Source: a virus
DNA: 20,466 bases
Strand: one strand, 5' to 3'
Virus record (IMG/VR): IMGVR_UViG_3300025131_000544
Location: 1 to 20,466 of that record
In this document: piece after piece, positions 5,119-12,829 of the stretch
Position numbering within the stretch: position 1 is the first letter of the stretch
Layout: each line of letters begins with the position of its first letter
The notes under the pieces: generated by a model
Database searches by the model: none
What the model saw: the letters and a program-made list of their open reading frames with translations, nothing else
Told to the model about the DNA's origin: nothing
Position numbers and translations under genes: made by a program

Positions 5119-7671
5119 CTATCTTGCGATATTCATTCCATACTCATCGTTTAATACATTAACTATAACCTCGCCAAGTTTCTTCTCATTAACTTGTAGG
5201 ACCACGGTACGATCAGTGGAAGACTGTCCTCCGGCTGGAGCAAACATATTCCCTATTGCGCCAGCAATTCTATCAAAGCCTCCCATTTCGGCTGACTTTG
5301 TTGCTTCGCCCACGATAGCCACAGCAGACATAGCCCTCTCCATGTTGTCTAATTCGGATGTGTTCATCTTCGCTGATACCGTAATAATCCTCTCTAAAGA
5401 ATTTAGTCCAGACTCTGCCTCCTTGAGGGCGGCCACTCCGTCGCTTATGCTTGCCATGGAATGACCAAGAGATAAAAAGGCTGAACTCAAAGCGGCAACG
5501 CCGATCATCATGGCAGTTCCTGTGATTGGATTCATTATCGCAAAGCCAAGTGCAATCAGTGCAGCGGTAAGAATAAAGAGAGACGCAGCAAAAGTAACAA
5601 TGCCCTTGCCGACGCCACCCCACTCCAGTTGACTCATTCTTTCAAAACCGTCAGCAAATGTCCCGATGCTTCCTGCCAATACAGACATTCCGTAAGCAGC
5701 GAGTGCAATACCTGCACCCATCATTAAAGCGGCGGCACCAAGAGCCAGCATAGCTAAAGCAAAGGCCGGCAAGACACCACTAGAAAGGGCGAGACCGGCA
5801 ACAACCATAAGAGCTACAAATGGTATTATTAACAACCCGAGCGCAGCCACTGCTGGCCAGAGCGCATCGCCCAGCCCAGAGAATGACATAACAAGCGTAG
5901 CCATACCAGTTGCCGCTAGCCAGATACCGGCTCCCAATAACAACACGGCGGCTCCCAGGGCTAGAATACCTAATATTAATTCTTTATTTATTTTCAGCCC
6001 CTGCCCCTTGGTCTTGTTGGCTAACTTTTCAGCCGCCTGCGCTTCGAGTTCAGCAGCAGTAAGGGCCTGTTTTGATGCTGTCTCCGCAACGTTGAATCCT
6101 ATTCTGAGTTTTGCCAGCACAGTGCTTGCTGCGGAAATAGCTTGCCATGTTTTATGGATAACTAGTATAGCCTGGAAGATTTTATAAAATGAGACGAGGA
6201 CGCCGACGAGGATGAGAAAGCCGCCAATATACGGCATTATCCCAGACTCAGCCATGGCGGTGGCCCACCCGGCGATGGTTATGGCTAATGGGGCGAATGC
6301 CTGCATCATTTTTTCACCAGCAGCCGTCAGCTTCTGGGTCATCTCTGTGAGTGCTTCGGCTCGCTTGGAGGCTTCTATCTGTTTTTCATTATACTTTGCG
6401 AATTCTTCTGGGTCTCCGAATATTTTCGCAGCCACATCAACGTCAATGCCCATCATCTCGGAAATAGCCTGCTTCTCTCTGTGGTGCAGCGCACTAAACT
6501 TTTTGTCGGTGTTTGCGAACTCCCTCTGCATTATACCAAGGCGGTCGGCATGCGATGCTGTCAATAATTCCGTGGAGTTAATTTGCATCCCCAACTGTGC
6601 GTTAAGCTTTCCAGCCATATCGGAAGCACCTTCAAATGTATCAACCGCTTCTGCTATATTAAATGCAGCCTCAACATCAACACCCATGGCCCTAGCTTTT
6701 TTAGCTAAGTCTTCGAATTTTTTAACGCCGTCTTTTCCGAAGCGTGCCATCTTTGGACCAAGCTTTACAAAGTCCTCGTACACTTGTCCAGTCGGTAGAT
6801 TAAGACCCTGAGCCAATTTGTCGAGCCTTGTCAGAAGTCCGGCGGATGAGCCCACCGATCCTTTCATGGAGTGAGATACAAGATCTATTGCTTTTGCGGA
6901 TACCTCAGAAGAAACTCCTAGGCGATTCATCATCACAACGTTGTCACTTAAATCTTTTTGGTCTTTCCGACTCATTTCGGCGAAATTATTGAAATTCTTA
7001 TTCAGAGCAGTCTGGGCTTCCGACGAATCCTTCATGGTTATTCCAAATTTGCTTCCTGTGGCGACTTGGTCCTTCATCACATCAACGGATTGCTGTCCGA
7101 GTCCGCTGTTAACTTGAAGGGACTTGTTAAAGGTATCAAACTTTAGTCCGATATCCTTTAGCTGACTTGCCATGTCCATAATGCCGCCAGAGAAGGCAAT
7201 ATTTTGGGCACCAGCAAACCTCATGGTCTTGGTTAGACTATTTTGGGCTTCCTCTACACGCTTTAGCCAGAATTCTCGTCTTTTCTCCGCAGCAACTTGT
7301 TTCTTTAATGTCTCTACAAACGCTTCTACTTCTGCGCCGTGTGCGTTGACATATCCTTGGGCAAGATCGACGAGATCGTTATAGTCAGAAAGGTCTTCGG
7401 CTCCCCTTTTTCTGGCTTCTTCTAAATTAGCCTCGGCTTCTAGAAGGGCATTGATATCATTTTGAACTTCTTTGGTTATCTTGCCTTCTTGGACAAGTGC
7501 TTCAAAGTTTTTTACAGTTAACTCATTGACGTTGTTGAGTGTGGTTCTTAAGTATCCGTATTGCTCATTCAGACCTTTGATGGCTTGAGTTTGTTCACGG
7601 GTAGCGGCAGCCGCCTTTTTACTGGCTTCTTCTTCTGCTGCTAATTGTTCTGGGGTCTTGTCGTCAGCCAC
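5119..7671 (-). CDS. Tail tape measure protein (850 aa)
   Basis: 850 residues with the usual tape-measure layout: a charged, helical, coiled-coil-like N-terminal part (EEEASKKAAAATREQTQAI and many Glu/Lys/Ala heptad-like stretches to ~150), a long helical middle, hydrophobic helices between about residues 460 and 740, and a small C-terminal tail (TDRTVVLQVNEKKLGEVIVN). Two hydrophobic units are similar to each other: LALGAAVLLLGAGIWLAATG and LALGAAALMMGAGIALAAYG. Such proteins fill the tail tube, set its length and are ejected into the cell envelope with DNA. At ~0.15 nm per residue this length would give a tail of roughly 125 nm (inference). The start is GTG at 7671, with GAGGTGA 5 nt upstream overlapping the previous stop codon, so it is translationally coupled to the 119-aa gene. 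The T4 functional counterpart is gp29, but no close sequence match is claimed. Confidence 0.9.
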   Translation of the reverse strand: MADDKTPEQLAAEEEASKKAAAATREQTQAIKGLNEQYGYLRTTLNNVNELTVKNFEALVQEGKITKEVQNDINALLEAEANLEEARKRGAEDLSDYNDLVDLAQGYVNAHGAEVEAFVETLKKQVAAEKRREFWLKRVEEAQNSLTKTMRFAGAQNIAFSGGIMDMASQLKDIGLKFDTFNKSLQVNSGLGQQSVDVMKDQVATGSKFGITMKDSSEAQTALNKNFNNFAEMSRKDQKDLSDNVVMMNRLGVSSEVSAKAIDLVSHSMKGSVGSSAGLLTRLDKLAQGLNLPTGQVYEDFVKLGPKMARFGKDGVKKFEDLAKKARAMGVDVEAAFNIAEAVDTFEGASDMAGKLNAQLGMQINSTELLTASHADRLGIMQREFANTDKKFSALHHREKQAISEMMGIDVDVAAKIFGDPEEFAKYNEKQIEASKRAEALTEMTQKLTAAGEKMMQAFAPLAITIAGWATAMAESGIMPYIGGFLILVGVLVSFYKIFQAILVIHKTWQAISAASTVLAKLRIGFNVAETASKQALTAAELEAQAAEKLANKTKGQGLKINKELILGILALGAAVLLLGAGIWLAATGMATLVMSFSGLGDALWPAVAALGLLIIPFVALMVVAGLALSSGVLPAFALAMLALGAAALMMGAGIALAAYGMSVLAGSIGTFADGFERMSQLEWGGVGKGIVTFAASLFILTAALIALGFAIMNPITGTAMMIGVAALSSAFLSLGHSMASISDGVAALKEAESGLNSLERIITVSAKMNTSELDNMERAMSAVAIVGEATKSAEMGGFDRIAGAIGNMFAPAGGQSSTDRTVVLQVNEKKLGEVIVNVLNDEYGMNIAR

Positions 7672-7681
7672 CTAGCTCACC

Positions 7682-8041
7682 TCACGGATTGCGAATTGGC
7701 CAATTAATCTTAGCTTCTCGCTCAAATCTTTTGATTGCTACATCAAGTTTGGATTTTTGTTTATAAGTCATAGGGTCATCAAGTCCGTATTTCTTGATGT
7801 ACATCATGTATCTTTTTTCGTTCACCAGAGCGTCTGTGAATCGAGTAACTTCTAATTTATTGCCCCGTACTTTGACTGGGATTCTGCGTCCTTTAAACAT
7901 TTTAGACAAAAGATATTCTATCCAAGCAGCGAACACATGAAGAATATTTTCATTTAACTGCCCTTTGCGAGCAGCGCCCAAATCAAATACGATATTTTCA
8001 AATTCATCTTCGTTTAACATACTAATCCCCAGCATTGACAC
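7682..8041 (-). CDS. Small protein before the tape measure; possible tail-assembly factor
   Basis: The full open frame is 119 aa from a GTG at 8041, which has no Shine-Dalgarno site. ATG at 8020 has GGGG about 6 nt upstream and gives a 112-aa protein beginning MLNEDEFENIVFDL; this start is more likely. The protein is soluble, helical and basic towards the C terminus (KRFEREAKINWPIRNP), with no recognisable motif. It lies directly between the gp26-like/frameshift pair and the tape measure, where tail-assembly chaperones are usually found, so a role in tape-measure or tube assembly is plausible but unproven. Its stop overlaps the ribosome site of the tape measure. A copy of the recurrent ACTATWTA element lies 30 nt upstream of ATG 8020, so it may also be transcribed separately. 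Confidence 0.8.
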   Translation of the reverse strand: MSMLGISMLNEDEFENIVFDLGAARKGQLNENILHVFAAWIEYLLSKMFKGRRIPVKVRGNKLEVTRFTDALVNEKRYMMYIKKYGLDDPMTYKQKSKLDVAIKRFEREAKINWPIRNP

Positions 8042-8071: not shown

Positions 8072-8290
8072 TTATCTTCTCGATTTAGATTTTGATTTGC
8101 GCAGGCTTTCTTCTTGAGCTTCGACTTCTTTTTTCTTTTGCTCGGCTAACCTATTTAGAAACCACCTTCGTATAACAACTGGGAGATTGTAAGCCTCAAA
8201 GAAGCTCCACCCCCCATAATACTTAAGTTGGAAAAACTCTTCGTAAACTGCTAGTTTATATTCGTCACTTAGGCCAAAAAAAGTCCGTGG
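8072..8290 (-). CDS. Start-less overlapping ORF, probable frameshift extension of the gp26-like protein
   Basis: The frame is open from the in-frame TGA at 8291-8293 to the TAA at 8072-8074. It contains no ATG, GTG or TTG codon, so it cannot begin by itself in the usual way. It is clearly protein-like: DEYKLAVYEEFFQLKYYGGW, then SFFEAYNLPVVIRRWFLNRL, ending in a Lys/Glu/Ser-rich tail with final SKSRR. It overlaps the end of the gp26-like gene, whose last codons run through a T7 run (8276-8282). A +1 slip there gives a fused protein of about 355 residues, and a -2 slip about 356. A -1 slip gives an immediate stop (GCC TAA). Its place between tail tube and tape measure is where lambda G/GT-type frameshifted tail-assembly chaperones lie. 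Alternatives are a homopolymer length error in the assembly or a non-standard start. Confidence 0.75.
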   Translation of the reverse strand, partial: PRTFFGLSDEYKLAVYEEFFQLKYYGGWSFFEAYNLPVVIRRWFLNRLAEQKKKEVEAQEESLRKSKSKSRR

Positions 8291-9140
8291 TCAGCGGAAC
8301 CTCCATGTCCGCCGTATGACCGCAATTGGTACACTCATACAAGTGAGTCATGTCAAGATTTGGAGTCACCTTACCCAAGGTGGTACGCAAGTATCTTGAA
8401 TCTTTAGCCGGCATCTGACGTACAAACGTAGTGCGGCTGATAATATCAGTATCTCCATTGACAGAAATAATTACTTCTTTGAGTTGATCTGTTAAAGCAG
8501 AGGACGGCATTTTCTTTTTTTGTCTTCTCTGGGATTCTTTAAAGATTTTCACTTCATCGTTGCCGGTCAAAAGGCGGCACTCCACTTCCACCTTGGAAAA
8601 TGGAAGTGTTATTATAAAGGTGCTCCTATTGGTCAGAGTAATCCCAAGTTCCTCAACTGCCTCAAATGTGTTGTTTGATTTCACATCCGATAGATCAAAC
8701 GAGAAATCATCCACCTCGGCACATGCTGGGCATGTTACTTTTGTATCATATTCTGAGCCGTATCCTGTAATTCGAGCAGCCACGATAACGGCATTCTTGT
8801 CGCCGACCAACATCTCATTGACCTTAATGTTCTTATCGGTGATTAGGTTTTGTAGTGCCCTGTCAATTGCGGTACCATTCTTAAGAAGTGCCCTATCAGT
8901 TAGAAGGTCTTCCTCTTTCGCAGTCATATAGCGAATTTCAATTTCCTCTCGGTTGTGAAGAGGATGTTGAGGGGGGTAAAAAACGCCTCGGCTCGGTAAT
9001 ACGACTGTTTCTGTCGGAGTTGACCAATTAAACTTTGCAGTAGATGATGTTTCTTCGGGAACAATTGCGGCAGGGGCTACCCCGTCGTCTTCCAAGAAAA
9101 CTTCTTCGGAGGAGCCCATACGGCCTTCATTTCTATTCAT
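8265..9140 (-). CDS. T4 gp26/gp51-family baseplate assembly protein with zinc knuckles
   Basis: 291 residues. After an acidic, disordered N terminus (~40 aa) it carries the T4 baseplate-protein family pattern: VVLPSRGVFYPPQHPL, then IEIRYMTAKEEDLLTDRALL, GTAIDRALQNLI, LLTGNDEVKIF, RQMPAKDSRYLR and the C-terminal VPLTTDFFWPK. In T4 this family (gp26, gp51) helps assemble the baseplate hub. Two cysteine pairs, C137-x-x-C140 and C270-x-x-C273, form a probable zinc-binding site. The start is ATG 9140 with AAAGG 9 nt upstream. Later ATGs at codons 4 and 8 are less well placed. The gene lies right after the tail tube, and its 3' end carries a T7 run leading into the start-less frame 8072-8290. It may therefore make two products, a short form and a form extended by ~67 residues, as tail-assembly chaperones do. 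Confidence 0.85.
   Translation of the reverse strand: MNRNEGRMGSSEEVFLEDDGVAPAAIVPEETSSTAKFNWSTPTETVVLPSRGVFYPPQHPLHNREEIEIRYMTAKEEDLLTDRALLKNGTAIDRALQNLITDKNIKVNEMLVGDKNAVIVAARITGYGSEYDTKVTCPACAEVDDFSFDLSDVKSNNTFEAVEELGITLTNRSTFIITLPFSKVEVECRLLTGNDEVKIFKESQRRQKKKMPSSALTDQLKEVIISVNGDTDIISRTTFVRQMPAKDSRYLRTTLGKVTPNLDMTHLYECTNCGHTADMEVPLTTDFFWPK
8276..8282 (-). other. Candidate +1/-2 frameshift site (T7 run)
   Basis: The minus strand reads GAC TTT TTT TGG CCT AAG TGA in the gp26-like frame. Phe-tRNA on TTT can re-pair perfectly after moving +1 or -2 within the seven T's, entering the 8072-8290 frame at GGC (8275-8273). The -1 frame stops at once. The site lies only three sense codons before the zero-frame stop. 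No strong downstream stem was identified by eye. Confidence 0.6.
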
Positions 9141-9197: not shown

Positions 9198-9749
9198 TTA
9201 AAGCCCTACTGTGCCACCACGCTTGCCCTTGGCGTATTCTGCCCAATCAAAGGCCACTTCCACAGTAAGTTCGTTCATCTCGTCAGAAGTATAATCCAAG
9301 CTTCCTCCGAAATCAACACTGACTATCCAAGCATTTTTCAAGCTCCATGTATCAATCGGGTCACCCTCGGCATCAATTTGTTGAATGAGGATATCTCCGC
9401 CCAAAGCGTCGCTAGCCTTTTTCTTACTAATGCTGGCACGCTTGTTGGAATCTGTAGGATATTGATATCCCGCTGCCGTTAGTCTCTGGATAAAAGCACT
9501 GGCAAGATCTGGGTCAACAGGGTCAACCAACGTCATACTTATGTTATCCCAGGTGACTCTTCCAGGGTACTTAAAGGTGTAATCCAAAAACATATGTTCC
9601 ACGGTTGAAACGTTTGCCTTTGGCTTCGTTGCTGTTTTAATAGACCACACAGGGATAGCGTCCATGTGGGATGCGCCCCCAAGTTGGACTAGGAACCGAT
9701 ATCGACGTTTTGGGTCACTTTTTTTCTGCCCCCACCAAAGATCTGCCAT
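9198..9749 (-). CDS. Tail tube protein (gp19-like)
   Basis: 183 residues, close to T4 gp19 (163 aa). Family features: an N-terminal strand RYRFLVQLGG, the segment FLDYTFKYPGRVTWDNISMT followed by LVDPVDPDLA, and a C-terminal block with DTWSLKNAWIVSVDFGGSLD and a closing DWAEYAKGKRGG. These match the tube-protein beta-barrel core that stacks as hexameric rings inside the sheath and conducts DNA. The start ATG 9749 has AGGAGA about 9 nt upstream. The gene follows the sheath gene after a 50-nt spacer that holds two short palindromes and a copy of the ACTATWTA element, so it may have its own promoter. This would suit a protein needed in many copies. No anomaly is seen in the coding region. Confidence 0.93.
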   Translation of the reverse strand: MADLWWGQKKSDPKRRYRFLVQLGGASHMDAIPVWSIKTATKPKANVSTVEHMFLDYTFKYPGRVTWDNISMTLVDPVDPDLASAFIQRLTAAGYQYPTDSNKRASISKKKASDALGGDILIQQIDAEGDPIDTWSLKNAWIVSVDFGGSLDYTSDEMNELTVEVAFDWAEYAKGKRGGTVGL

Positions 9750-9799: not shown

Positions 9800-12700
9800 T
9801 TAGTCCTCAAAAGATGCCCCACTATTTGTGATGACAAAGTCGATGGCGAAGAACTCTACAGATCGAGTCGGCTTCACCAGTAGTTTAGCATACACAATGT
9901 TTCTGTCGATAAGATCTGGCGTTGTGGTAGTCTCGTCAAGGATAAGCTTGAAGTCCTGAATGCCAAACTGAGCCTTTACAGAATCCAACAATGGCGTTGC
10001 CTGTTGAATAAATCTCGCCCAGGTGTCTCTCGTGTTCTGCTCGAACAGGAGTCGAGAAGCGATAAACGATATCTCACGCTTCAAGAATACCATCAGGCGA
10101 CGGACGTTAATCCGATCAAGAGCAGAAGCTGTTTGTTGAAGTGTTTTTTGTCCGAAGATAACGATCCCTTCTGCCGGGAACTTAGCTATCGGGTTAATAT
10201 TTGCCTCATACAGTTTATCTCTATCATCCGAAGATAGACGCTTGGCAACTTCTAGCACCGGTATGCCCGCTGCACCCTCTGACAGTCCGCCTCGCTGGAA
10301 CCCAGCGGGAGCAAACCATGGGGCAGCAACCCTGTCCGTGGTAGAAAGAGCACCCATGGCCACTACCGAAGGAGGTGCCCAAAGTGTTCTATTAGATACT
10401 GTATCTTGTATTAATACCCAAGGGGCGTAACAAGCTCCGTAGCTATTGTTAATGTTTCTTGCCTTGAGTGTATCGACCGCCTGTTTCACCGTATAGGCGT
10501 TTCGGGCGGAAGCACTTTCTGTACTTTCTGTGTCTGCATCATACACTTTTCGAATATCTATAATAGCCAAGGCATCACCACGTTCTTCCACTGTATCAAG
10601 CAAGTGCTTGGTTACATTTTCTTGGGTAATTCCCGGCATTGTTATTAGATTGTACGACGTCGTGTCCGAGTCAGACATTATGTTCACCGCACGCTTCAGA
10701 GTATGTAGCTGATAGGACTCGTCCTCGTCGGAGGCAGTCTCAAACCCGCTCAAGCGGAAGGGGTCACGCTCGGTAATATCAAAGCCGTCAGAACCCCCTG
10801 CCAAAAGAGTGGTAAATCTATCTGCGCCACGATCCAGTGTTCCTGTATAAGAAGAACTAACGGCCGAAAGGCTGTTTCCAGCAAGTCGAGACCCCGAAGT
10901 ATAAGTCAATGTACCGTTACTTTCGGCAACAATATCATCGAGCGAGAATGTCCAAGATATTGTCAAAGCATCGCTTGTAAGGCTTCCTGAACTTTGTCCA
11001 ATTCCGGAGGCTTCAACATCGTGAGATGGTGAATAAGGTGTTCCCTGGAGTCCTTTTGCACGAGGGCGAATCAGATCTGTGATTTCGTCATTAAACAACG
11101 TGTCAGTAGGAGTCTTACCCGTCCATGCACCCCAATAGGTGCTCTTCATTTTTCCTGCTGTATTGCCCCAGTTGCTTCTTTGCCGCAAAGGAACTCTTGG
11201 GAACTTAATAGAAGCGGATAGTGACCCCGGAGCGAACGCAGTTCGGTTCTGCACGTTGAGAGAAATAACGTCGTCGAACGCCTCTCTGTCAACGGTGGCT
11301 GGGTGTCCGCCGATATCGCCGAAGGAAGAAGCCTTGCCTCCGTAGACCATAGAGCTAGCTCTTGCCGTGCCGCTCGCAAACTGACCAAGGCTATAGACTT
11401 TCCCTGATCCAGAGAGAATCGTGCAATCACGATACTTTAAAGGACCATAGACGCCGAAGGGCAAGCAGGCTTCACCGTGAGCCCCACGATCAACATCTTC
11501 ATCCATGGCAACACGGATGTACTTAGATTTATTCGAATACTGACCGTAAACTCTGTTAAGTTTCATGGTCTGGTCATACACTTCGTACTGATCACCAACC
11601 ACTCTTGCAATATAGTTCGGAGAAGCAGGATTCAAATCCAACCCATCAAATCTTTCTAGAATGATCGGGTTTGAGTCGGTATCACGCATTTTTCGAATCA
11701 ACAGCCCAAAAGACCCATACAGTTCGAAGTCTCCGTCGGGTGCTTTAATATCTACAATCGATACCTTTACCTCCCTCTGTGTTGAGTCTCCTGCTGATCT
11801 CGCTTCCACTCTAAACAGCTTTTGCATGCTAGCTGGATCGTATGTTGACGTGTTAGTACTAAGATCTTGTGCCAGGAACCATCCTGTGGATGCCTTCGTA
11901 GCAGCAAACTCAAAATCGCTCTGCTCTTGGGTAGCATCCTTTTGATTAACCATCGGGAGTATAGCACAATGGAACTCACTTGATGTTTGAATCTCAGCAC
12001 TGCAAACACCAATCGAGGCAGAGTTTTCTGCCTTCAACTGGCGCTCAAAAGATTCCCCAAGCCAGAATTTTCCACCAAGGTTTGCGTTTGCCGCAGCAGT
12101 GGTAGAAATGCTGGTATTTGTTACGGTGGGGTTAGTATTCAAAACTTTTCGAATAAAGTTTTGCTTGGACGGATTAAGGCTAATTCTTGTGGTGTTTAGG
12201 TTACCCAATGTCCCGTCTTTAGTGACGCCCAGGACAATGTCACCATTTGTTTCGGTCTTGAACAAAGCGCAAGCAGATCCTGTAACCTTGCCAACATGAG
12301 CTTGTGTTCCGGAAATGACAACACGCCCGCCGGTGCAATAAAACGTCGCCGCAAGGGTTCCTGTCACAGGTTCTCCGATTCCCCCAGCCTTCAAGCTGCT
12401 CGATGGCCAAACAAACAGACCCCAAGCACCTCCGGCAGAAACGGTACTGCTAATTGTTCCTGCTGCCCAACCGGCGAGACCGGCAGAACTAGCATCAGTG
12501 GACTGTTCTCCCAAAAGACGAAGGTAAGTAACAGGAGAATTATTTCTAAGCCATGCTTGAGCGGCGTAAGCGCCGTAGGTAGGTCCCGTGACACTTCCTC
12601 CACGCCACACATCGCCGCCTGCGCCGCCTGCAACTGGCTCGCCAAAGGTCTCAACAAAGTCAGAAAAGGAACTTACTGTAACTGGGGTCATCCCCGGTCC

Positions 12701-12829
12701 CTTGCTGGCTCTGCCTATAACTACAGGGCCAACAGCCGCTGGTGTTGCGGGAAGTTGTGAGTTGTCTATTTCGTCAACAAAAACCCCTGGGGAAATGAAC
12801 TTGAATTTTTTAGAAGAGTCGCTCGCCAT
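9800..12829 (-). CDS. Tail sheath protein (gp18-like, 1009 aa)
   Basis: 1009 residues, far longer than T4 gp18 (659 aa). The N terminus has the sheath signature: KFISPGVFVDEIDNSQLP, then VGPVVIGRASKGPG and SFSDFVETFGEP. The C-terminal domain, from about residue 740, has the conserved core used for inter-subunit linking: IMSDSDTTSYNLITMPGI, APPSVVAMGALS, AAPWFAPAGFQRGG, LYEANINPIAKFPAEGIVIF and GQKTLQQTASALDRINVRRL, followed by an IDRNIVYAKLLVKPT strand. The region in between (about 150-700) is Ser/Thr/Gly-rich and likely forms extra domains on the outside of the sheath. The sheath contracts to drive the tube through the cell envelope. The start ATG 12829 has GAGGAG 11 nt upstream, after a 103-nt gap with a palindrome and direct repeats. 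No frameshift or internal stop is seen. Confidence 0.95.
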   Translation of the reverse strand: MASDSSKKFKFISPGVFVDEIDNSQLPATPAAVGPVVIGRASKGPGMTPVTVSSFSDFVETFGEPVAGGAGGDVWRGGSVTGPTYGAYAAQAWLRNNSPVTYLRLLGEQSTDASSAGLAGWAAGTISSTVSAGGAWGLFVWPSSSLKAGGIGEPVTGTLAATFYCTGGRVVISGTQAHVGKVTGSACALFKTETNGDIVLGVTKDGTLGNLNTTRISLNPSKQNFIRKVLNTNPTVTNTSISTTAAANANLGGKFWLGESFERQLKAENSASIGVCSAEIQTSSEFHCAILPMVNQKDATQEQSDFEFAATKASTGWFLAQDLSTNTSTYDPASMQKLFRVEARSAGDSTQREVKVSIVDIKAPDGDFELYGSFGLLIRKMRDTDSNPIILERFDGLDLNPASPNYIARVVGDQYEVYDQTMKLNRVYGQYSNKSKYIRVAMDEDVDRGAHGEACLPFGVYGPLKYRDCTILSGSGKVYSLGQFASGTARASSMVYGGKASSFGDIGGHPATVDREAFDDVISLNVQNRTAFAPGSLSASIKFPRVPLRQRSNWGNTAGKMKSTYWGAWTGKTPTDTLFNDEITDLIRPRAKGLQGTPYSPSHDVEASGIGQSSGSLTSDALTISWTFSLDDIVAESNGTLTYTSGSRLAGNSLSAVSSSYTGTLDRGADRFTTLLAGGSDGFDITERDPFRLSGFETASDEDESYQLHTLKRAVNIMSDSDTTSYNLITMPGITQENVTKHLLDTVEERGDALAIIDIRKVYDADTESTESASARNAYTVKQAVDTLKARNINNSYGACYAPWVLIQDTVSNRTLWAPPSVVAMGALSTTDRVAAPWFAPAGFQRGGLSEGAAGIPVLEVAKRLSSDDRDKLYEANINPIAKFPAEGIVIFGQKTLQQTASALDRINVRRLMVFLKREISFIASRLLFEQNTRDTWARFIQQATPLLDSVKAQFGIQDFKLILDETTTTPDLIDRNIVYAKLLVKPTRSVEFFAIDFVITNSGASFED

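What the first reader, a model, noticed from the sequence alone, without database searches (positions are those of the whole stretch)
8072..8290. Start-less ORF reached only by a +1 or -2 slip at a T7 run at the end of the gp26-like gene
The frame 8290-8072 has 72 sense codons with a protein-like composition and no ATG, GTG or TTG. The gp26-like gene reads through T7 (8276-8282) three sense codons before its stop. A +1 or -2 shift enters the new frame, while -1 stops at once. The pair lies between tail tube and tape measure, where frameshifted tail-assembly chaperones are found. Most known cases use -1 (lambda G/GT type); -2 is known from phage Mu. A T4 gp26/gp51-family protein as the short form of such a pair would be unusual and suggests that this family serves as tail-assembly chaperone here.
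Basis: partly seen in the sequence, partly recalled or inferred. Interest (0 to 1): 0.78.

Follow-up and report, generated by a model that had tools for sequence, protein, structure and literature searches.

The report
Frameshifted T4-type phage tail chaperone
A T4-like phage makes a short and a long form of its tail-building chaperone from one gene, because some ribosomes slip one base forward at a run of seven T's; the protein family and the trick were known, but this forward-slipping version, kept across a large group of mostly uncultured, largely marine phages, was not found described.

Summary
ORF2 (8290-8072, minus strand) has no start codon and overlaps the end of a T4 gp26-type gene (PF12322). 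It is a real conserved domain: 150 of 152 related viral loci keep the same frame offset, pN/pS is 0.16 in its frame, and AlphaFold models it at pLDDT 93. The shift cassette TTT-TTT-TGG-CC is almost invariant, synonymous positions included. Variants such as TTC-TTT-TGG and TTT-CTA-TGG favour +1 over -2 and rule out a homopolymer error.

ORF2 is homologous to the C-terminal domain of T4 gp51. Cyanophages join the same two parts by -1 slippage on U_UUU_UUC or U_UUU_UUA (69 of 69 loci). T4 carries gp26 (short form) and gp51 (long form) as separate genes. Two clusters in bacterial genomes, like extracellular injection systems, encode both parts in one reading frame (PF12322 + DUF6760).

So this is a G/GT-type tail assembly chaperone pair made by +1 frameshifting. 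That the T4 family supplies these chaperones is already published (Vladimirov et al. 2022, known here only from its title and citing papers). New, as far as the held literature shows, are the +1 mode, its cassette, and a selected GGAGG 20 nt upstream. No expression data were available.

The parts
8265..9140 (-). gp26-like short form (G part), 291 aa, stop TGA 8267-8265
   Evidence: PF12322 55.4 bits against cut-off 24.5; phrog_150 baseplate hub E 1.2e-16
8274..8282 (-). +1 slip site TTT TTT TGG (first TTT 8282-8280, P-site TTT 8279-8277, A-site TGG 8276-8274)
   Evidence: near-invariant in 124 distinct loci; re-pairing table
8072..8275 (-). T-type C-terminal domain, 67 aa from GLSDEYK, reached only by the shift; frame open from 8290
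   Evidence: pN/pS 0.16; helices 4-21, 25-29, 33-66 at pLDDT 93
8072..9140 (-). predicted 355-aa long form (+1 fusion, ...TTDFF-GLSDEYK...)
   Evidence: translation; profile aligns with a natural one-frame fusion protein, probability 97.2, E 3.7e-11
8299..8304 (-). SD-like GGAGGT inside the G coding region; 20 nt between GGAGG and the P-site TTT; role unknown
   Evidence: Glu codon there is GAG in 55 of 55 non-redundant loci against 36% elsewhere
9198..9749 (-). tail tube protein (context)
   Evidence: phrog_4542 E 1.7e-25; PF06841 E 2.1e-6, just under its cut-off
7682..8041 (-). 119-aa protein of unknown family between ORF2 and the tape measure gene (context)
   Evidence: no Pfam or PHROG hit
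5119..7671 (-). probable tape measure protein, 850 aa (context; inferred from position, size and hydrophobic stretches)
   Evidence: weak BLASTP similarity to the annotated tape measure protein of Flavobacterium phage immuto, E 8e-4; no PHROG hit

Best explanation
The gp26-like gene and ORF2 are one tail assembly chaperone gene pair of the G/GT kind. Most ribosomes stop at TGA (8265) and make the 291-aa short form. A minority, with tRNA-Phe in the P site on the second TTT and TGG waiting in the A site, slip one base forward onto the overlapping TTT, read GGC next, and make a 355-aa long form ending in the T-type domain. By analogy with lambda, the G part would coat the tape measure protein and the T part would recruit tail tube subunits. 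Shown here: conserved frame offset, missing start codon, purifying selection on ORF2, selected cassette, homology of the fusion to gp51 through an intermediate, and natural one-frame fusions. Inferred: the direction (+1 rather than -2), the ratio of the two forms, and the chaperone activity.
For: Same offset in 150 of 152 loci. Near-invariant TTT[T/C]TTTGGCCT over 124 distinct loci, synonymous sites included. ORF2 pN/pS 0.16. No start codon in the window and none conserved. +1 re-pairing possible in all 11 junction types, -2 not in three of them. Isolates with the same layout: Mel-JY01, immuto, SP-15, LIS04, GXN1. Cyanophage G+T fusion aligns with T4 gp51 end to end, probability 98.8, E 7.7e-17; cyanophage T with the window-group T, 96.4, E 1.4e-9. 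One-frame PF12322+DUF6760 protein in L287. Position between tube and tape measure genes. gp26 and gp51 are T4 hub assembly chaperones, gp51 absent from virions (PMC3004832).
Against: No protein or ribosome-profiling data. No conserved RNA structure at the site, and the GGAGG lies further away than known stimulators. The direct window-to-gp51 profile comparison is weak (34%); the link runs through cyanophages. For the window's own TTT TTT, -2 is equally possible by base pairing. The tape measure assignment is weak.
Confidence: 0.83

Rival explanations
1. Same pair and function, but the shift is -2 (as in phage Mu), so the long form has one extra Phe: DFFFGLSDEYK instead of DFFGLSDEYK.
For: TTT TTT T allows the P-site tRNA to re-pair perfectly after -2. 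-2 is known in phage Mu (PMC5009743). For TTT CTA TGG at the second codon, -2 re-pairs better than +1.
Against: -2 fails at codon position 2 for TTC TTT TGG (L049, L149), GXN1 and LuckySocke, which keep the same offset; +1 works in all types. Different loci could in principle use different modes.
Confidence: 0.1
2. Transcriptional slippage: RNA polymerase adds or drops U's in the T run, and ordinary translation of the altered mRNA gives the long form.
For: A T7 run is present, and slippage at longer runs is known in bacteria (own knowledge).
Against: Loci with TTTCTTTGG, TTTCTATGG or TTCTTTTGG keep the offset with runs of only 3-4 T; seven T is short for slippage (own knowledge).
Confidence: 0.04
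3. ORF2 is an independent small gene started at an unrecognised codon or by coupled reinitiation.
For: Cyanophage 'gp51' is annotated with its own ATG; a selected SD-like GGAGG lies upstream.
Against: No ATG/GTG/TTG anywhere in the window's ORF2 and no near-cognate start in its first 30 codons; no conserved start in relatives; the cassette and frame link would need no conservation; the parts occur fused in one frame in T4 gp51 and L287.
Confidence: 0.02
4. A sequencing or assembly error split one gene in two.
For: Homopolymers are error-prone (own knowledge).
Against: The same split occurs in more than 120 distinct loci, including ones without a long homopolymer, and in isolates.
Confidence: 0.01

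Closest known systems
T4 gp26 (short) and gp51 (long) chaperones, PF12322; named T4-type tail assembly chaperones by Vladimirov, Gautam and Davidson 2022 (full text not held)
   Same: Same protein family; the long form is the short form plus the T-type domain, joined at the same place.
   Different: T4 uses two separate genes and no frameshift; the window makes both forms from one locus.
Cyanophage and related T4-like gp26/'gp51' pairs (P-HM1, syn9, S13, QD01, Ah1)
   Same: Same two parts, start-poor second part, slip at the Phe-Phe end of G.
   Different: They use -1 on U_UUU_UUC or U_UUU_UUA; some have a downstream hairpin. The window needs +1 (or -2).
Lambda gpG/gpGT tail assembly chaperone
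   Same: Two overlapping ORFs between tube and tape measure genes, second without start, long form by slippage.
   Different: Lambda uses -1 on a G-rich site (own knowledge); no sequence homology was shown.
HF1-group haloviruses and HSTV-2 (archaeal myoviruses)
   Same: Proposed +1 frameshift at a TTT codon between tube and tape measure genes; a Serpecor1 protein is a weak structural match to the T domain (E 2.2).
   Different: Their site is TTT-CGC, without T7-GGCC; homology of the G parts was not tested here.
E. coli prfB (RF2) +1 site CUU_UGA_C
   Same: The TTT CTT TGG C variants offer the same CUU to UUU slip before a UG-purine codon.
   Different: Here the waiting codon is sense (UGG); in prfB it is a stop and the SD lies about 3 nt away (own knowledge).
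PF12322 + DUF6760 one-frame protein in injection-system-like clusters (L287, L288)
   Same: Same two domains in the same order, next to a gp19-type tube gene.
   Different: One reading frame, no frameshift. L286 may be a -1 case.

Membership tests
PF12322 (T4 gp26/gp51 family) | Profile score above the curated cut-off | tested here: met
   55.4 bits against 24.5
T4-type tail assembly chaperone (gp26/gp51) | Long form carries the gp51 C-terminal domain | tested here: met
   Through cyanophages: T against gp51 95.9%, T against window group 96.4%, fusion against gp51 98.8%. Direct window-gp51 comparison weak, 34%. Same three-helix plan
Lambda G/GT-type chaperone pair | Two overlapping ORFs between tube and tape measure genes | tested here: met
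   Tube 9198-9749 clear; tape measure 5119-7671 only probable; one extra gene between
Lambda G/GT-type chaperone pair | Second ORF without its own start, conserved slip site and offset | tested here: met
Lambda G/GT-type chaperone pair | Both forms made, short form in large excess | not testable with these tools
   needs protein or ribosome data
Lambda G/GT-type chaperone pair | Binds tape measure and tube proteins; absent from virions | not testable with these tools
   only literature on T4 gp51
Lambda G/GT-type chaperone pair | Sequence or fold homology to known chaperones of that group | tested here: inconclusive
   only weak Foldseek hits of the T model to proteins named tail assembly chaperone (BonaeVitae E 3.9, RcRhea E 8.0)
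DUF6760 (PF20546) | Profile score above the curated cut-off | tested here: not met
   13.4 bits against 27 for the window. 37 of 56 relatives match at E up to 1, best 3.2e-5: distant homology, not membership
Programmed +1 frameshift site | P-site tRNA can re-pair one base forward and the site is under selection | tested here: met
   shift itself not observed

The most novel reading that the evidence does not exclude
The cassette TTT-YTN-TGG-CC with a fixed GGAGG 20 nt upstream is a new class of +1 frameshift signal, spread over a large marine phage clade, and one chaperone family has switched at the same Phe-Phe site between +1 slippage, -1 slippage, one-frame fusion and gene duplication.
Probability: 0.55. 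Interest if true: 0.62.

Novelty: new variant of a known kind. Interest (0 to 1): 0.47.

Why it matters
A 2016 review states that G-T frameshifting is conserved in long-tailed phages 'except T4' (PMC5009743). The comparisons here place T4's two genes beside relatives that make both forms from one gene by +1 or -1 slippage, and beside bacterial injection-system-like clusters with a one-frame fusion. They also explain why cyanophage 'gp51' is only about 20% of the usual length and similar only in its C-terminus (PMC3037559): the annotated gene is the shifted end of gp26. Many phage annotations miss or truncate this domain. The naturally varied sites, +1 and -1 at the same place in one family, would make the sequence rules of slippage directly testable.

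Tried and rejected
Conserved RNA structure near the +1 site: RNAalifold found none close to the site, and z-scores were only slightly below control. A weak consensus fold (-1.1 kcal/mol) in the window +5 to +120 beat column shuffles but was not pursued. Start codon for ORF2: none in the window, none conserved. T domain against solved structures: no hit. Fusion profile against PDB sequences: no meaningful hit. Plasmids: no relative. Direct T-profile comparison with T4 gp51 was insignificant until cyanophage intermediates were used; reversed gp51 and gp26 as controls gave nothing. My first thought that assigning gp26/gp51 as T4's chaperones was itself new was dropped.

Full report
What is there. 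On the minus strand, the gp26-like gene (9140-8265) ends GAC TTT TTT TGG CCT AAG TGA. ORF2 opens after an in-frame TGA (8293-8291) and runs to 8072 without ATG, GTG or TTG; its first 30 codons also lack CTG, ATT, ATC, ATA and ACG. The first gene is a PF12322 / phrog_150 protein. It lies between a tail tube gene and a probable tape measure gene. The tape measure assignment is inferred: there is no confident family hit, only weak similarity to the annotated protein of Flavobacterium phage immuto.

Is it more than chance? Searches of IMG/VR with both parts gave 152 loci in which both could be placed; 150 have the same offset. Among 127 distinct loci the junction is TTT TTT TGG in 102, TTT CTT TGG in 12, TTT CTA TGG in 7 and TTC TTT TGG in 2. 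Eleven of the twelve positions from the first T to CCT are at 94-100%, and the twelfth (T or C) at 85%. Phe codons elsewhere in the gene are TTC in 23.6%, but in 2/96 and 0/85 at the two junction codons (P 2.8e-9 and 1.2e-10). ORF2 has pN/pS 0.16 in its own frame and above 1 in the other two. The binomial P values treat loci as independent, which they are only roughly (under 80% protein identity). ORF2 is therefore a coding domain, and the T run is kept for its own sake.

Which shift? A start codon cannot explain it: 51 of 124 distinct loci have no ATG/GTG/TTG upstream of the domain, and no position is conserved. A homopolymer error or polymerase slippage is unlikely, since loci with interrupted runs keep the offset. 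For each junction type I asked whether the P-site tRNA could re-pair at codon positions 1 and 2. +1 works for all eleven types, at the first or second codon. -2 fails for TTC TTT TGG (L049, L149), TTC TTT CGT (Streptococcus phage GXN1) and CTG TTT CAG (Streptomyces phage LuckySocke). +1 is thus the common denominator. For the window's own TTT TTT, -2 stays possible.

What is ORF2? AlphaFold models it confidently as three helices (4-21, 25-29, 33-66; pLDDT 93). A T4-type gp51 (L173) models with the same plan at its C-terminus (206-221, 226-231, 234-248); T4 gp26 is shorter and ends at ...LKEFFELL. Foldseek with the T model found, among weak hits, the 53-aa 'Gp51' of Prochlorococcus phage P-HM1 and the C-terminal half of a Klebsiella phage gp51.

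The cyanophage bridge. In P-HM1, gp26 ends GAT TTT TTC GTA TAG and 'gp51' follows; the -1 frame is continuous through T_TTT_TTC, with a perfect hairpin after it. All 69 distinct related loci keep T_TTT_TTC or T_TTT_TTA and the -1 domain. Other isolates show the same: syn9, Cronobacter S13, Vibrio QD01, Aeromonas Ah1, and Sinorhizobium phiM19 with T_TTT_TTT. Profile comparison gives: cyanophage fusion against T4 gp51, probability 98.8, E 7.7e-17, through the shift point; cyanophage G against T4 gp26, 98.8; cyanophage T against window-group T, 96.4, E 1.4e-9. The direct window-to-gp51 comparison is weak (34%), so the link is indirect.

Other solutions in the same family. Agrobacterium Atu_ph07, Pseudomonas PA5oct and two uncultured phages have T_TTT_TTC and a -1 frame. 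Bacillus SP-15, Listeria LIS04 and Streptococcus GXN1 have +1. For the L287 protein PF12322 and DUF6760 both score above cut-off, and the window fusion profile aligns with the pair across the junction (probability 97.2, E 3.7e-11). A natural fusion of the two parts is what the frameshift product should look like.

Possible stimulators. No conserved RNA structure was found at the +1 site. A GGAGG at 8304-8300 is under nucleotide-level selection: the Glu codon there is GAG in 55 of 55 loci against 36% elsewhere, and the codon before it ends in G in 51 of 55. Its 20-nt distance from the P-site codon is longer than that of known SD stimulators (own knowledge: about 3 nt in prfB, about 10 nt in dnaX), so its role is open.

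How it most likely works. By analogy with lambda gpG/gpGT (PMC5009743), the 291-aa short form would bind the tape measure protein in many copies. The 355-aa long form, made by a minority of ribosomes, would recruit tube subunits. This step is inferred. It agrees with gp26 and gp51 being listed as T4 hub assembly chaperones, with gp51 needed for assembly and absent from the finished particle (PMC3004832).

Known or new? The chaperone role of the T4-type genes is published: Vladimirov, Gautam and Davidson 2022, Virology 566:9-15. Its full text was not held. A citing paper summarises that some T4-like phages carry a short gene plus a long fused gene (PMC10885494), and another attributes poly-T -1 signals in T4-like phages to it (PMC12846349). 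+1 shifts in this gene position are proposed for HF1-group haloviruses (PMC7230728) and HSTV-2. What I did not find described is the +1 mode in the PF12322 family, its cassette and clade-wide conservation, the selected GGAGG, and the one-frame PF12322-DUF6760 protein. The paper library is open-access only, so absence there is weak evidence.

Noticed in passing
L198:9260-9560 (Prochlorococcus phage P-HM1) and L199-L278: Cyanophage 'gp51', annotated as a separate gene, is the -1 continuation of gp26 through T_TTT_TTC or T_TTT_TTA in 69 of 69 distinct loci; in P-HM1 and close relatives a hairpin (GCCCTC...GAGGGC) follows at once.
   Followed up: yes
L287:871-1626 and L288: One-frame protein with PF12322 at the N-terminus and DUF6760 at the C-terminus, next to a gp19-type tube gene in injection-system-like clusters; suggests DUF6760 is the T-type half of this chaperone family.
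   Followed up: partly
L286:647-1194 (minus strand): A short G-like gene is followed by a DUF6760 frame of 65 codons that opens 10 codons earlier and is offset by -1 near a run of five G; it may be another frameshifted pair.
   Followed up: no
8299-8304 (minus strand): GGAGGT inside the G coding region is under nucleotide-level selection (GAG in 55 of 55 loci) but lies 20 nt from the slip codon, outside the range of known SD stimulators.
   Followed up: partly
L062:3440-3500 and L065: The two loci of the window group whose ORF2 is in the -1 frame, at AAT TTC TTC TGG, not a canonical -1 heptamer.
   Followed up: no
L168, L169, L171, L192: Jumbo and other phages (Atu_ph07, PA5oct, two uncultured) with the same two parts joined by -1 at T_TTT_TTC; their second ORFs are missing or truncated in annotation where annotation exists.
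   Followed up: partly
9800-12829: Tail sheath gene of 1009 aa, about twice the length of the phrog_23 profile it matches end to end, so it carries a large insertion.
   Followed up: no
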